Assembly: GCF_014696345.1 (NCBI RefSeq)
Contig: NZ_JACJPY010000005.1
Location: 1-64,000 of the forward strand
DNA: 64,000 nt
DNA from: Pseudanabaena cinerea FACHB-1277
GTDB taxonomy: Bacteria; Cyanobacteriota; Cyanobacteriia; Pseudanabaenales; Pseudanabaenaceae
Direction of reading: 5' to 3'
Of this stretch, positions 16,601 to 19,904 are shown one piece after another. The notes beneath the pieces are model-generated. The model saw only the letters and a list, made by a program, of their open reading frames with translations, searched no databases and was not told the origin of the DNA. Both the position numbers and the translations under genes were made by a program. How positions within the stretch are numbered: the first letter of the stretch is position 1; each line of letters begins with the position of its first letter.

Positions 16601-16730
16601 GGCGATCGCTGGTTTGGGTGAGAGGGGGCGATCGCTGGTTTGTGGGGTGATGTGGCGATCGCGTTTTGATGAGGTGAAGTAGCGATCGTTGGTTTGGGGA
16701 TTGAGTGGGTGAATTGGCGATCGCTTTTAT
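16601..16730 (+). repeat. HIP1-centred degenerate repeat array 1
   Basis: Five units of GCGATCGC or a one-base variant spaced 22-40 bases apart. Most are followed by TGGTTTG(G/T)GG and a GA-rich spacer, reading on the plus strand. It fills most of the gap between the protease gene and the DUF6883 gene. Confidence 0.8.
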
Positions 16731-16782
16731 AAAACAATCAAACATGGCAAAATAAAAACGATTGTTACAGTCATAGCTAGAT

Positions 16783-17115
16783 ATGCTAATTCCCAACACC
16801 AACAACGCCATTGTTGATATTCGTAAATTACGGGATTACTGTCTTAATCTAGAACATGATGACGGTAAACATAAAGCCAGACTGTTTTCCTCAATCCTTG
16901 GCATGAAAGCAGAAAATGCTGAAGAATTAAGGCTGATTCTGCTAGAAGTTATCAAAACCCATGAAGCTAAATTAGGAAGATCTGATAGATTTAGGCAACG
17001 ATACACTGTGGATTGTGAGATTACATGGCAAAATAGAAATGCAACCCTGCGGAGTGGATGGATTATTGAACATAGTTCAAATATTCCAAAATTAACGACT
17101 TGCTACCCTATATAG
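16783..17115 (+). CDS. DUF6883 domain protein
   Basis: A 110-residue protein that matches the DUF6883 pattern from memory: IPNTNNAIVDIRKLRDYCLN at the start, then HKARLFSSILGM and AEELRLILLE. The function is not known. The domain occurs in small stand-alone genes and, as I recall, at the ends of some toxin-like proteins. The next gene (DUF4926) begins within about 20 bases, so the two are probably co-transcribed. Their spacing and size resemble a toxin-antitoxin or toxin-immunity pair, but that is inference. The ribosome binding site is weak. The gene sits between two HIP1 repeat arrays in an island rich in toxin-antitoxin modules. Confidence 0.7.
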   Translation: MLIPNTNNAIVDIRKLRDYCLNLEHDDGKHKARLFSSILGMKAENAEELRLILLEVIKTHEAKLGRSDRFRQRYTVDCEITWQNRNATLRSGWIIEHSSNIPKLTTCYPI

Positions 17116-17133
17116 ACATTGGAGATGATAAAT

Positions 17134-17382
17134 ATGTTAACAAGTTCAGTAAAACTGCTAGATGTCGTAGCTCTAACTATCGATCTTCCCCAAGATAATT
17201 TATGGCGCGGACAGGTTGGTACAGTTGTTGAGATACTTGCCAATGGTCAAGCCTTTGAAGTCGAATTTAGCGATCGCAATGGTCGCACATACGAATCTCT
17301 AGGATTAACTCCAGAAGAATTTATGATTCTACATTTCGAGCCAGCATTACCTAATCCAAAATCTCAATTAGTTACAGCATGA
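17134..17382 (+). CDS. DUF4926 domain protein
   Basis: An 82-residue protein of the DUF4926 family, a small SH3-like beta fold. The family pattern is visible: LLDVVALTIDLP, then WRGQVGTVVEIL and FEVEFSDRNGRTY. I chose ATG 17134 because GGAG at 17121-17124 lies nine bases upstream. Longer versions begin at TTG 17119 or ATG 17125. It follows the DUF6883 gene closely and is probably its partner, perhaps as antidote; the function is not established. Confidence 0.72.
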   Translation: MLTSSVKLLDVVALTIDLPQDNLWRGQVGTVVEILANGQAFEVEFSDRNGRTYESLGLTPEEFMILHFEPALPNPKSQLVTA

Positions 17383-17411
17383 TCTGAGTTTAAATGTTTT
17401 TTCATAGCTGC

Positions 17412-17676
17412 GGCGATCGCTGGTTATGGGAGTTGAGAGGGCGATCGCTGGTTTGTGGAATGAGGGGCAATCGCTTTGAACATTTATAGTGTCTGGGGAA
17501 ATAGGCGATCGCTGTTTGATTTGAGGTGAGTTGCGATCGCTGGTTTGTGGAATGAGAGGGCGATCGTTGGTTGTGGATGATGTGGCGATCGCTGTTTGTG
17601 GGATGAAGGGGCGATCGCTGGTTTGTGAGGTTGAAGTGGCGATCGTTGGTTTGTGGGTTGATGTGGCGATCTCTTG
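17412..17676 (+). repeat. HIP1-centred degenerate repeat array 2
   Basis: About ten units of GCGATCGC, GCGATCGT or near variants. Each is followed by (T)GGTTTGTGG or TGTTTG and a GA-rich spacer; the typical period is 25-30 bases. It fills most of the gap between DUF4926 and the first toxin-antitoxin pair, with the same orientation as array 1. Confidence 0.82.
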
Positions 17677-17733
17677 ACCCCATGTTAAGATTTAACAAAG
17701 TAAACATACTGGTATTCACATATTAATTCTCCT

Positions 17734-17955
17734 ATGAACACTCTAGTAGAGATTAAAACAGCGATCGCTAGATTGTCTGATGACGAAACTTCGACCTTAT
17801 TGTCGTGGCTACAAGAACGCTCAGAAGATGACTGGGATAAGCAAATAAAGAAAGACTCAGAGCAAGGTAAATTAAACAAAGTCATTCAACGAGCGAAAGC
17901 TCATATTGTCAACAATCGCGTAATGAAACTGGATGAAGTCATTAACAACTCCTGA
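17734..17955 (+). CDS. Putative antitoxin of a ParE/RelE-type module
   Basis: A 73-residue acidic then basic helical protein (SDDETSTLLSWLQERSEDDW; ending in AHIVNNRVMKLDEVINNS). Its size and position directly before a RelE/ParE-like toxin identify it as the probable antitoxin, although I do not recognise a named DNA-binding family. Its end overlaps the next gene by 23 bases, implying coupled translation. No clear Shine-Dalgarno precedes the ATG. Confidence 0.65.
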   Translation: MNTLVEIKTAIARLSDDETSTLLSWLQERSEDDWDKQIKKDSEQGKLNKVIQRAKAHIVNNRVMKLDEVINNS

Positions 17956-18196
17956 TTTTTGGGAAGCTTACGCAGCATTGCCACCAGCCATCAAAGCACA
18001 AGCTCAAAAAACTTATCAAATTTGGATAAGCGATCGCTTCTATCCATCCCTACACTTTAAAAAAGTCAATCAAAATTTGTGGTCTATTCGCATCAATAGA
18101 GAATATCGAGCTTTAGCTTTAAAAGAAGGAGATGATTATTACTGGTTTTGGATCGGTTTGCATGACGAATACGACAGATTAATTGATGGAAGTTGA
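17933..18196 (+). CDS. RelE/ParE-superfamily toxin
   Basis: An 87-residue protein with the pattern of RelE/ParE-type toxins: an N-terminal helical pair (PDFWEAYAALPPAIKAQAQKT), then beta-strand segments with basic residues (LWSIRINREYRALAL), an aromatic strand (DDYYWFWIGLHDEYDRLI) and the end. The family cleaves mRNA on the ribosome or poisons gyrase; the sequence alone does not say which. It overlaps its antitoxin gene by 23 bases. The reading frame is intact. Confidence 0.75.
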   Translation: MKSLTTPDFWEAYAALPPAIKAQAQKTYQIWISDRFYPSLHFKKVNQNLWSIRINREYRALALKEGDDYYWFWIGLHDEYDRLIDGS

Positions 18197-18322: not shown

Positions 18323-18658
18323 TTACAAATATTCAAGATGCTTCATCATTTCATCCACTGGAAGCACCTGCCAAATCAAAACTAAACCCTGGACAATCTC
18401 CCCAATAGACTTACTTTTCTGTTGACAGTAAGCAATACCATAATGAGAAACATCTTGCTGCTGAAGCCTTAGAAAATCAGTATCTTGAGTAAAAATCACT
18501 CGTTTTTGAGATACAGCAAAAGTCAACTGTTCTTCATCCAATTTACCAATTAGATTCTCCTCTGGAGTCGTTGTTACATCAATTCCTCTTCTTCTCAAGC
18601 CATTAGCGATCGCCTGACTCATATTTTCGTCTAAATGAAACCTGATTCTATCTTTCAT
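18323..18658 (-). CDS. DUF5615 PIN-like toxin
   Basis: A 111-residue PIN-like protein of the DUF5615 family. Hallmarks are FHLDENMSQAIANGLRRRGI near the start, with the Asp/Glu pair of the PIN active site, then VIFTQDTDFLRL with the second Asp cluster. The family is predicted to be an RNase toxin. The gene lies downstream of, and overlaps by 11 bases, the DUF433 gene, the usual antitoxin partner. The reading frame is intact. Confidence 0.8.
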   Translation of the reverse strand: MKDRIRFHLDENMSQAIANGLRRRGIDVTTTPEENLIGKLDEEQLTFAVSQKRVIFTQDTDFLRLQQQDVSHYGIAYCQQKSKSIGEIVQGLVLIWQVLPVDEMMKHLEYL

Positions 18659-18968
18659 GCTGATTTCTCAACTTTTGCTGCACAAGAGAAACCGTATTTT
18701 TCTTCATTGCCAAAGCAAACAATTCATCATCTTCAATTTGCTTCCTAATCTCTTCTTGATGATCATAATAATATGCTAAAGCTGCGTAGATATCTGACAA
18801 ATTGATACTAGGATAATGCAGCAAAATTTCATCAGGAGACATCCCCATTTGCTCGTACCACACCGCGATATTTTGTACCGTAATTCTATGTCCAGCAATA
18901 CGCGGCTTCCCACCACATACTCCGAGCGTCATCTCAATGTGTTCCTTAATCACAGCAACAGTTGACAT
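18648..18968 (-). CDS. DUF433 antitoxin
   Basis: A 106-residue DUF433 protein with the winged-helix signature GGKPRIAGHRITVQNIAVWY, then SPDEILLHYP and LSDIYAALAYYYDH. I chose ATG 18968 because the domain begins soon after it and AGAGAA precedes it; the frame continues upstream to 19010. It pairs with the DUF5615 toxin in a type II-like module and probably represses its own promoter (family inference). Confidence 0.82.
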   Translation of the reverse strand: MSTVAVIKEHIEMTLGVCGGKPRIAGHRITVQNIAVWYEQMGMSPDEILLHYPSINLSDIYAALAYYYDHQEEIRKQIEDDELFALAMKKNTVSLVQQKLRNQHER

Positions 18969-19021
18969 TGTAATTTCTCTTACACAACATAGTCCGTCAA
19001 TTATAACCATTTTCTCCCACA

Positions 19022-19330
19022 GGCGATCGCCATTTCAGTTCAAAACTTGAGAGGCGATCGCTTTTTGATTGAGGTTATGTTGGGGCGATCGCTGTTTTTT
19101 GTGAAGGGGCGATCGTTAGTTTATAGGATAAAGGGGCGATCGCGGGTTTATGGGTTGAAGGGGCGATCGTTGTTTGGTGTGGGAAATAGGCGATCGCTGG
19201 TTTGTGGAATGAGAGGGCGATCGCTGGTTGAGAGAGATGAAGGGGCGATCGCGGTTTGGGTAGGGAAGGTGTGATCGCGGTTTGGGATGGAGGATCGATC
19301 GCTGGTTGGTTGTGTGAAGTGGCGATCGCA
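19022..19330 (+). repeat. HIP1-centred degenerate repeat array 4 (longest)
   Basis: About twelve HIP1 octamers or one-base variants within 310 bases. They are followed by (T)GGTTTG, TGTTT or GGGTTTA and a GGATGAAGGG-like spacer. It fills most of the gap between the divergent DUF433 and antitoxin genes. It translates into spurious repetitive peptides in several frames. Confidence 0.85.
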
Positions 19331-19402
19331 TTTCTCCAAAAATTAGTTATAATCTGTGTAAATCTAATTAATTAAACTAAGAGAGCTAAAGTCATAAAAG
19401 CT

Positions 19403-19624
19403 ATGGTGACATTAGAAGAAGCTATTTCAACCGTTAATCAACTTCCAATTGAACAAAGAGAAATGTTATTGGAAATAGTTAAAAACCAAATGATTGAAGC
19501 TCAACGAGAAGAAATTGCTAAAGATGCTAAGGAAGCGATCGCTGCATTTCGTCGTGGAGATTTAAAACCTCAACCTATAGAAAATATTATTTCTGAATTG
19601 CAAGCAACTTTAACCGAAGACTAA
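19403..19624 (+). CDS. Antitoxin of a RelE/YafQ-like pair
   Basis: A 73-residue helical protein (TLEEAISTVNQLPIEQREML, then EEIAKDAKEAIAAFRRGDL and IISELQ) of the small cyanobacterial antitoxin type with a C-terminal toxin-binding stretch. Its TAA overlaps the toxin ATG (TAATG), a classical coupling arrangement. The gene looks intact while its partner toxin is frameshifted. Confidence 0.72.
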   Translation: MVTLEEAISTVNQLPIEQREMLLEIVKNQMIEAQREEIAKDAKEAIAAFRRGDLKPQPIENIISELQATLTED

Positions 19625-19904
19625 TGAGAGAGCTAGTTTTAACGCCAAAATTCAAACGCTCGTTTAAAAAATTCGTCAAACAGAATTCTTCACTTGAGGC
19701 AAAAATCATCCAAATATTACAATTGATGAAGGAAGACGTTTTTGCGACTCAATTAAGCACTCACTCACTACAAGGCAAGTTATCAGGATTAAAAGCCTGT
19801 TCTTGTGGCTACGATTGTAGGATTTATTTACTGTAGAAACTTCTCAAGAGCAGACAGAAGTAATAGTTCTCCTTGATATTGGTACTCATAGCGAAGTTTA
19901 TTAG
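19624..19904 (+). pseudogene. RelE/YafQ-type toxin with a frameshift near its C-terminus
   Basis: The frame from the ATG encodes 70 residues (RELVLTPKFKRSFKKFVKQN up to SGLKACSCGYDCRIYLL) and stops at 19836. The family continues after the CGYDCRI motif with a conserved tail. That tail is present in another frame, starting near 19833: VETSQEQTEVIVLLDIGTHS followed by EVY and a stop at 19904. Adding one T in the run at about 19822-19824 would restore a continuous protein of about 93 residues. This is a recent single-base deletion, a sequencing error in a homopolymer, or less likely programmed slippage. The toxin is probably inactive as written, since the last strand and conserved end residues are lost. 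Confidence 0.8.

What the first reader, a model, noticed from the sequence alone, without database searches (positions are those of the whole stretch)
16783..17382. DUF6883/DUF4926 as a candidate two-gene toxin-antidote unit
Two small genes of unknown families, 18 bases apart, lie in an island where every other pair is a toxin-antitoxin module. The second has the only good ribosome binding site (GGAG, nine bases before ATG), which suits higher antidote production.
Basis: inference. Interest (0 to 1): 0.5.

Follow-up and report, generated by a model that had tools for sequence, protein, structure and literature searches.

The report
Paired bacterial RNA-cutting toxin and antidote
Two small neighbouring genes of unknown function in a cyanobacterium very probably form a toxin-antidote pair, because the first is predicted to fold like known bacterial RNA-cutting toxins and is almost never found intact without the second.

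Summary
DUF6883 (16783-17115) and DUF4926 (ATG 17134-17382) lie 18 bases apart, and only the second has a ribosome-binding site (GGAG, 9 bases). The reading as a toxin-antidote unit is supported by several independent lines. (1) Pairing: in 146 cyanobacterial genomes, 76 of 81 full-length DUF6883 genes are directly followed by DUF4926, never preceded by it; 4 of the other 5 have a divergent DUF4926-like gene there. In 151 Chloroflexota genomes it is 12 of 12. (2) Asymmetry: all 29 intact copies of close relatives keep an open DUF4926; 3 of 4 broken copies still have it. (3) DUF6883 also sits at the tips of phage MuF capsid proteins, an effector-like protein and a repeat-linked orphan cassette, several followed by DUF4926. 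(4) AlphaFold2 (pLDDT 93.7) gives DUF6883 the BECR fold; the best match is the tRNA-cutting toxin CdiA-CT of Klebsiella 342 (Z 11.2). Its invariant Lys15, Tyr19 and Thr/Ser106 fall where the published Lys-Tyr-Thr triad should lie. DUF4926 is a small SH3/KOW-like barrel. I infer a standalone BECR tRNase-type toxin with a blocking antitoxin. Toxicity, substrate and binding are untested. I found no paper describing the pair.

The parts
16783..17115 (+). DUF6883 gene, 110 aa: predicted BECR-fold ribonuclease toxin; Lys15, Tyr19, Thr106 are the candidate catalytic residues
   Evidence: Pfam PF21814 E 1.7e-26; AF2 pLDDT 93.7; 6cp9 Z 11.2; K15 77/77, Y19 76/77, T or S106 75/77
17134..17382 (+). DUF4926 gene, 82 aa from the ATG at 17134 (87 aa from the TTG at 17119): predicted SH3/KOW-like beta-barrel antitoxin or immunity protein
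   Evidence: Pfam PF16277 E 3.6e-26; AF2 pLDDT 84.7; SH3/KOW-like folds
17121..17124 (+). GGAG ribosome-binding site of DUF4926, 9 bases before the ATG
   Evidence: SD motif conserved in 19 of 21 loci
16716..16782 (+). conserved leader of the cassette (about 67 bases), presumably holding the promoter; no sigma-70-like site found here above chance
   Evidence: 91-92% identity block to two relatives begins at 16716; promoter scan at chance level
17734..18196 (+). neighbouring toxin-antitoxin-like pair (73 aa partner, ParE_like toxin); context only
   Evidence: PF24732 E 5.6e-10
18323..19010 (-). neighbouring pair DUF433 (18648-19010) and DUF5615 PIN-like (18323-18658); context only
   Evidence: PF04255 E 5e-21, PF18480 E 1.3e-15
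19403..19836 (+). neighbouring pair with a YafQ-like second gene; context only
   Evidence: PF15738 E 1.1e-5, 26 bits against a cut-off of 30

Best explanation
The two genes are a mobile toxin-antitoxin cassette. DUF6883 is a BECR-fold ribonuclease, most likely a tRNase using a Lys-Tyr-Thr active site like the contact-dependent-inhibition toxins CdiA-CT of Klebsiella 342 and E. coli 3006, and it would stop growth by cutting tRNA. DUF4926 is a small SH3/KOW-like barrel, made from a stronger ribosome-binding site, that would bind the toxin and block it. The same toxin domain, with the same antidote, also serves as the tip of delivered toxins (phage MuF capsid proteins and effector-like proteins); the window copy is the free-standing, undelivered form. 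Shown here: pairing, gene order, asymmetric loss, SD contrast, predicted fold, residue conservation, tip architectures. Inferred: toxicity, RNase or tRNase activity, and the binding of DUF4926 to the active site.
For: Pairing: 76/81 full-length DUF6883 directly upstream of DUF4926 in 146 cyanobacterial genomes, 0 in reverse order; 4 of the 5 others have a DUF4926-like ORF directly downstream and the fifth lies at a contig end; 12/12 in 151 Chloroflexota genomes; also on plasmids of Rubrobacter, Nitrosococcus, Stanieria, Gloeothece, Meiothermus and Nostoc. Own genome: 7 DUF6883, 6 followed by DUF4926, the seventh at a contig end. Asymmetric loss: 29/29 intact DUF6883 with an open DUF4926, 3/4 broken ones with DUF4926 still open. 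Toxin tips: MuF minor head protein in a phage contig followed by a DUF4926-like gene; MuF in an Anoxybacillus prophage; 371-aa effector-like protein followed by DUF4926 E 8.8e-23, its middle 70.8% identical over 48 residues to a stretch annotated as an Hcp-family T6SS effector (listing only); cassette after a thrice-repeated linker followed by DUF4926; cyanobacterial protein of at least 333 aa followed by a DUF4926-like ORF; Streptomyces protein facing a SUKH immunity gene. Structure: pLDDT 93.7, three helices then four strands; best PDB match 6cp9 E 4e-4 and Z 11.2, then 6cp8 Z 8.3, then BrnT and RelE toxins; BFVD top hits are phage minor capsid proteins, TM 0.90 and 0.83. Active site: K15 77/77, Y19 76/77, T or S106 75/77, R or K103 59/77; the review PMC9086364 (Table 1 passages and one section read) gives K157, Y160, H170, R252, T255 for Kp342 and K204, Y208, H256, R260, T330 for EC3006, with a Lys-Tyr-Thr triad. 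The aligned ranges (9-110 on 151-259; 5-110 on 194-334) put K15 on K157 and K204, Y19 on Y208, and T106 on T255 and T330 if no gap falls near the ends.
Against: No activity was measured. No sequence-level match to any solved toxin was found. The residue equivalence rests on range ends; the aligner printed no residue pairs, and Y19 would land one residue off Y160 of Kp342. The His is not conserved as such (H25 in 43 of 77), and K31 (67 of 77) has no assigned counterpart. 34 of 115 DUF4926 genes have no DUF6883 detected nearby, and only 3 of 28 orphans inspected show remnants, so DUF4926 may have other partners or roles. Rhizobium etli has a DUF6883 after a restriction endonuclease gene with no DUF4926 annotated. 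The Anoxybacillus MuF gene is followed by a 56-aa ORF that is not DUF4926. DUF4926 shows no recognised DNA-binding domain, unlike many type II antitoxins. The window copy has Arg at position 71.
Confidence: 0.78

Rival explanations
1. Toxin-antidote pair, but the toxin cuts mRNA or rRNA or acts on another target (as RelE, ColE3-like or ParE relatives of the same fold do), not tRNA.
For: BECR relatives differ in target; BrnT and RelE toxins appear lower in the same list (Z 6.3 and 5.5); fold alone does not fix the substrate.
Against: The closest matches by a clear margin are the two Lys-Tyr-Thr tRNases (Z 11.2 and 8.3), and the invariant residues fit that triad.
Confidence: 0.3
2. The free-standing pair is not a suicide module but a leftover or reserve of delivered toxin cassettes: DUF4926 is kept as immunity against incoming DUF6883 effectors, and DUF6883 is decaying cargo.
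For: Orphan DUF4926 genes are common (34 of 115); broken DUF6883 beside open DUF4926 (3 of 4 broken copies); a Bartonella DUF4926 next to an Imm7 immunity gene; the window copy has Arg at position 71.
Against: Most DUF6883 copies are full length (81 of 109 matches full and stop-free) with candidate catalytic residues kept across phyla, and the pair recurs in multiple copies per genome, which suggests selection for the toxin too.
Confidence: 0.2
3. An obligate two-subunit enzyme or complex that is not a toxin.
For: Very tight, ordered pairing.
Against: DUF4926 is often alone; DUF6883 works as a tip on unrelated phage and effector-like proteins, and one such protein faces a different immunity family, SUKH.
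Confidence: 0.04
4. An antiphage defence unit in which DUF6883 is the abortive effector held by DUF4926 until infection.
For: Sits in a TA-rich island; DUF6883 follows a restriction endonuclease gene in Rhizobium etli, and DEAD/DEAH helicase genes lie next to it in Meiothermus and nearby in Methylobacterium.
Against: No significant PADLOC match, no consistent sensor gene next to the pair; context evidence is thin.
Confidence: 0.15

Closest known systems
CdiA-CT/CdiI of Klebsiella pneumoniae 342 (PDB 6CP9), BECR tRNase toxin and immunity protein
   Same: Best structural match (Z 11.2, 100 residues, 2.5 A); Lys, Tyr, Thr at matching ends of the domain; antidote gene next to it; the published CdiI is mostly beta-strand (PMC9086364, passages)
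   Different: About 15% identity, no sequence-level match; part of a large secreted CdiA protein, whereas the window gene is free-standing; DUF4926 is a short SH3/KOW-like barrel; EF-Tu dependence unknown here
CdiA-CT of E. coli 3006 (PDB 6CP8, 6VEK)
   Same: Second best structural match (Z 8.3 and 8.0); K-x3-Y spacing as in DUF6883; triad Lys-Tyr-Thr (PMC9086364)
   Different: Longer aligned span in the toxin (194-334 for 95 aligned residues); CdiI fully helical (PMC9086364); CDI-delivered
RelE/ParE-superfamily type II toxin-antitoxin modules (RelBE, HigBA, BrnTA)
   Same: Two small genes, BECR-fold toxin, free-standing, in TA-rich islands, multiple copies per genome; toxin first, as in HigBA (recalled)
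   Different: Closer in structure to CDI tRNases than to RelE; antitoxin without a recognised DNA-binding domain; not named in the passages read of PMC11980606
MuF polymorphic toxins of temperate phages (PMC5576092, passages read)
   Same: DUF6883 is the C-terminal domain of MuF-type minor head proteins followed by a small gene
   Different: The window copy has no MuF or other delivery domain; DUF6883 was not named in the passages seen
Rhs orphan tips acting as TA modules (PMC7043789, title and abstract start only)
   Same: Precedent for a delivered toxin tip plus immunity gene acting as an internal TA module
   Different: Rhs proteins in Salmonella; unrelated delivery system and not tested for homology here

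Membership tests
Pfam DUF6883 (PF21814) | Profile match above the curated cut-off | tested here: met
   93.1 bits against 27
Pfam DUF4926 (PF16277) | Profile match above the curated cut-off | tested here: met
   90.8 bits against 29.1
BECR-fold ribonuclease toxins | Helices followed by a four-stranded antiparallel sheet, structural match to known members | tested here: met
   Predicted model pLDDT 93.7; 6cp9 Z 11.2, 6cp8 Z 8.3
BECR-fold ribonuclease toxins | Conserved Lys, Tyr and Thr/Ser of a catalytic triad (Kp342/EC3006 type) | tested here: met
   K15 77/77, Y19 76/77, T or S106 75/77; equivalence inferred from aligned range ends, not from printed residue pairs
BECR-fold ribonuclease toxins | Additional catalytic His and Arg of Kp342/EC3006 | tested here: inconclusive
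   H25 in 43/77, K31 in 67/77, R or K103 in 59/77; no residue-level structural map
BECR-fold ribonuclease toxins | RNA cleavage | not testable with these tools
   needs biochemistry
Type II toxin-antitoxin module | Two small co-directional adjacent genes, conserved as a pair | tested here: met
   76/81 and 12/12
Type II toxin-antitoxin module | First protein toxic, second neutralises it | not testable with these tools
   only indirect: 29/29 intact DUF6883 with open DUF4926, 3/4 broken with open DUF4926
Type II toxin-antitoxin module | Antitoxin with a DNA-binding domain (frequent, not universal) | tested here: inconclusive
   only DUF4926 found in Pfam; model is SH3/KOW-like
Polymorphic toxin/immunity system | Same C-terminal toxin domain on different delivery proteins, immunity gene next to it | tested here: met
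   For the family: MuF, effector-like protein, linker cassette, with DUF4926 or DUF4926-like genes downstream
Polymorphic toxin/immunity system | Delivery or trafficking domain on the toxin itself | tested here: not met
   Window protein is 110 aa, covered from residue 3 to 109 by DUF6883 alone: so the window copy is not filed as a polymorphic toxin

The most novel reading that the evidence does not exclude
DUF6883/DUF4926 is a widespread, undescribed family in which one tRNase domain with a CDI-type Lys-Tyr-Thr active site and one SH3/KOW-like antidote serve interchangeably as an internal genomic toxin-antitoxin module, a phage capsid-borne toxin and a delivered effector tip, so that orphan DUF4926 genes in many cyanobacteria give immunity against incoming DUF6883 weapons.
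Probability: 0.4. Interest if true: 0.65.

Novelty: new member of a known kind. Interest (0 to 1): 0.52.

Why it matters
Two domains of unknown function, found in 40 and 45 of the 146 cyanobacterial genomes sampled, would gain a concrete, testable function: a ribonuclease toxin with named catalytic residues and its antidote. It would also join two fields, since the same toxin-antidote pair appears as a genomic TA module, at the tip of phage capsid proteins and at the end of an effector-like protein, which makes the exchange between internal addiction modules and delivered weapons directly testable.

Tried and rejected
Sequence searches of the PDB with single proteins and with profiles of 17 and 43 DUF6883 sequences found no toxin; the similarity is seen only by fold. 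PDB hits of DUF4926 (best profile hit 2ehb, E 9e-4 over 35 positions) are short local matches and were not used. The DUF2442 hit of the toxin (E 0.085) and the PADLOC REase_II hit (E 0.014) are noise level; PHROGs gave nothing for the toxin. Phage records of INPHARED gave no match to the window DUF6883; IMG/VR gave few and none for the Anoxybacillus query. E. coli complete genomes gave no DNA match to the effector tip. Promoter and terminator scans were at chance level. DUF4926 structure matches are a common small-barrel arrangement (Z 7-9 with many unrelated proteins), so I draw only the fold class from them. The idea that all orphan DUF4926 sit beside toxin remnants was rejected: 3 of 28 inspected (a fourth hit there, L079, is the intact DUF6883 of the neighbouring pair), though 12 of 115 lie next to detectable fragments. 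Literature: DUF6883 in no held paper, DUF4926 in one, as a passing annotation in a cyanophage paper (passage read); six further searches listed no paper that by its title or abstract start describes the pair; most subscription papers are not held, so absence in print is not proven.

Rows dropped before counts: one search counts as full-length only stop-free matches covering at least 85 of 110 profile positions (81 of 109); one search used 12 of 15 Chloroflexota matches by the same rule. The SD comparison used 21 of 34 sequences (window plus 33 loci); the other 13 had a broken or offset start, or were not in the automatic DUF4926 motif list; the DUF4926 start codons were my choice. The AF2 alignments used 24 of the 33 loci plus 3 phage-contig loci and the window, and 12 of 33 plus 3 and the window.

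Full report
OBSERVATION. The likely DUF4926 start is the ATG at 17134, 18 bases after the first stop; GGAG at 17121-17124 is 9 bases before it. Family assignments are firm (E 1.7e-26 and 3.6e-26). Three further toxin-antitoxin-like pairs follow within 2.5 kb. The genome is a Pseudanabaena-like cyanobacterium, judging from its closest loci at 92-94% protein identity. It has 7 DUF6883 matches, 6 of them with DUF4926 immediately downstream; the seventh, on contig C69, lies at a contig end.

PAIRING ACROSS GENOMES. In 146 genomes of the phylum, DUF6883 occurs in 40 and DUF4926 in 45. Of 109 DUF6883 matches, 81 are full length and free of stops; 76 of these have a DUF4926 match on the same strand within 300 bases downstream (gaps between matched parts 21-106 bases) and none has one upstream. 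Of the five exceptions, four have a small ORF directly downstream with the DUF4926 pattern that falls below the threshold, and one lies at a contig end. In 151 Chloroflexota genomes, 12 of 12 full-length copies are paired. Annotated plasmids of Rubrobacter, Nitrosococcus, Stanieria, Gloeothece, Meiothermus and Nostoc show the same order. With a few copies per multi-megabase genome, chance would give such an arrangement about once in ten thousand copies (my estimate).

ASYMMETRY. DUF4926 can be alone: of 115 stop-free matches over the cut-off, 69 are next to a full DUF6883, 12 next to a fragment and 34 next to none detected. Intact DUF6883 is hardly ever alone. Among the 33 close loci, 29 intact DUF6883 genes all have an open DUF4926, while of 4 broken ones 3 still have an open DUF4926. 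This is what a toxin and its antidote should show, and not what an obligate complex should show. The broken sample is small and not corrected for relatedness. Translation signals differ too: an SD motif precedes DUF4926 in 19 of 21 loci and DUF6883 in 2 of 21.

TOXIN TIPS. DUF6883 is also the last domain of larger proteins. In a phage contig (L057) it ends a 479-aa MuF-type minor head protein (DUF6883 E 5.9e-24, Phage_Mu_F E 2.9e-15), and the next ORF, 65 aa, is DUF4926-like (E 1e-3; 3.6e-5; below the curated cut-off). An Anoxybacillus prophage has the same architecture, but its next ORF is not DUF4926. In a Subdoligranulum plasmid and two IMG/VR contigs the domain follows, in the plasmid in frame, a 110-base linker present three times downstream of or inside a long gene, and DUF4926 follows; this is the layout of displaced polymorphic-toxin tips. 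A 371-aa protein of a contig whose DUF6883 matches a Rahnella plasmid at 100% ends in DUF6883 and is followed by DUF4926; 48 residues of its middle are 70.8% identical to a stretch annotated as a type VI Hcp-family effector (seen only in the listing). A cyanobacterial protein of at least 333 aa and a Streptomyces protein that faces a SUKH immunity gene complete the picture. A Foldseek search of predicted viral proteins independently found phage minor capsid proteins as its two best matches (TM 0.90 and 0.83). Published work describes MuF proteins as toxins with a small gene downstream in 89.4% of cases (PMC5576092, passages).

STRUCTURE AND ACTIVE SITE. The AlphaFold2 model of DUF6883 (28 sequences) has mean pLDDT 93.7 and pTM 0.85, with three helices followed by four strands. 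Its best solved match is the toxin-immunity complex of Klebsiella 342 (6cp9: Foldseek E 4e-4; Z 11.2, 2.5 A over 100 residues), followed by E. coli 3006 (6cp8 Z 8.3, 6vek 8.0), a Salmonella toxin-antitoxin complex (6.7), BrnT (6.3) and RelE (5.5). The upper part of that list is mostly BECR-fold toxins. In an alignment of 77 diverse DUF6883 sequences, Lys15 and Trp93 are invariant, Tyr19 is kept in 76, Gly40 in 76, Thr or Ser106 in 75, Gly71 in 75 and Lys31 in 67. A review (PMC9086364, Table 1 passages and the section on activities) reports that Kp342 and EC3006 cut uncharged tRNA-Ile and use a Lys-Tyr-Thr triad plus a His and Arg: K157, Y160, H170, R252, T255 and K204, Y208, H256, R260, T330. 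From the aligned ranges printed, K15 falls on K157 and on K204, Y19 on Y208 (and one residue off Y160), T106 on T255 and on T330, and position 103 (R or K in 59 of 77) on R252. This assumes no gaps near the ends; the aligner did not print residue pairs. No sequence search reaches these toxins. The DUF4926 model (pLDDT 84.7, weak at both ends) is a five-stranded small barrel like SH3 and KOW domains. That fold is common and by itself gives no function.

MECHANISM. Most likely DUF6883 is a BECR ribonuclease that cuts tRNA and halts translation, and DUF4926 binds and blocks it. The steps shown are pairing, order, asymmetric loss, SD contrast, tip architectures, predicted fold and conserved residues. 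The steps inferred are toxicity, RNase activity, tRNA as the substrate and direct blocking. The unit behaves as a cassette: the DNA block shared with two Pseudanabaena relatives begins at 16716 and ends at 17372 or 17453, with no alignment of the flanks.

COUNTER-EVIDENCE AND LIMITS. DUF4926 without DUF6883 is common. In Rhizobium etli a DUF6883 gene follows a restriction endonuclease gene with no DUF4926 annotated. The catalytic His is not conserved in position. The window copy carries Arg at position 71 (codon AGG at 16993-16995; the four relatives compared have GGG), where 75 of 77 sequences have Gly, so it may be impaired. A literature search found DUF6883 in no held paper and DUF4926 in one, in passing.

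VERDICT.

Noticed in passing
window 16993-16995: The window's DUF6883 has Arg (AGG) at position 71, where 75 of 77 aligned sequences have Gly and the four relatives compared at codon level have GGG; this copy may be weakened.
   Followed up: partly
window 16716-17372: Cassette-like conservation: 91-92% identical DNA block in two Pseudanabaena relatives (L018, L019) with unaligned flanks, so the pair seems to move as a unit.
   Followed up: partly
L112:2932-3312: Rhizobium etli DUF6883 directly after a BPTD_3080-family restriction endonuclease gene and without DUF4926: a possible defence-linked use of the same domain.
   Followed up: no
L051:2209-4548: Streptomyces 495-aa protein with DUF6883 at residues 270-371, convergent with a SUKH (SMI1/KNR4) immunity-type gene instead of DUF4926.
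   Followed up: partly
L087:547-1371: In an unnamed cyanobacterium the DUF6883 frame is open through an upstream folK-like (HPPK, recognised by eye) sequence, giving a 274-aa fused frame followed by a DUF4926-like ORF.
   Followed up: no
L091:827-1153: A 108-aa frame joins the start of a DUF4926-like sequence to a DUF6883 fragment: a chimeric relic next to a small toxin-antitoxin-like pair.
   Followed up: no
L108:3385-4195: Bartonella plasmid with a DUF4926 gene next to an Imm7-family immunity gene, possibly a small bank of orphan immunity genes.
   Followed up: no
window 17402-17719 and 19047-19339: Intergenic stretches full of repeats around GCGATCGC (HIP1, name recalled) with GGTTTGTGG spacers; similar repeats flank the pair in L017.
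   Followed up: no
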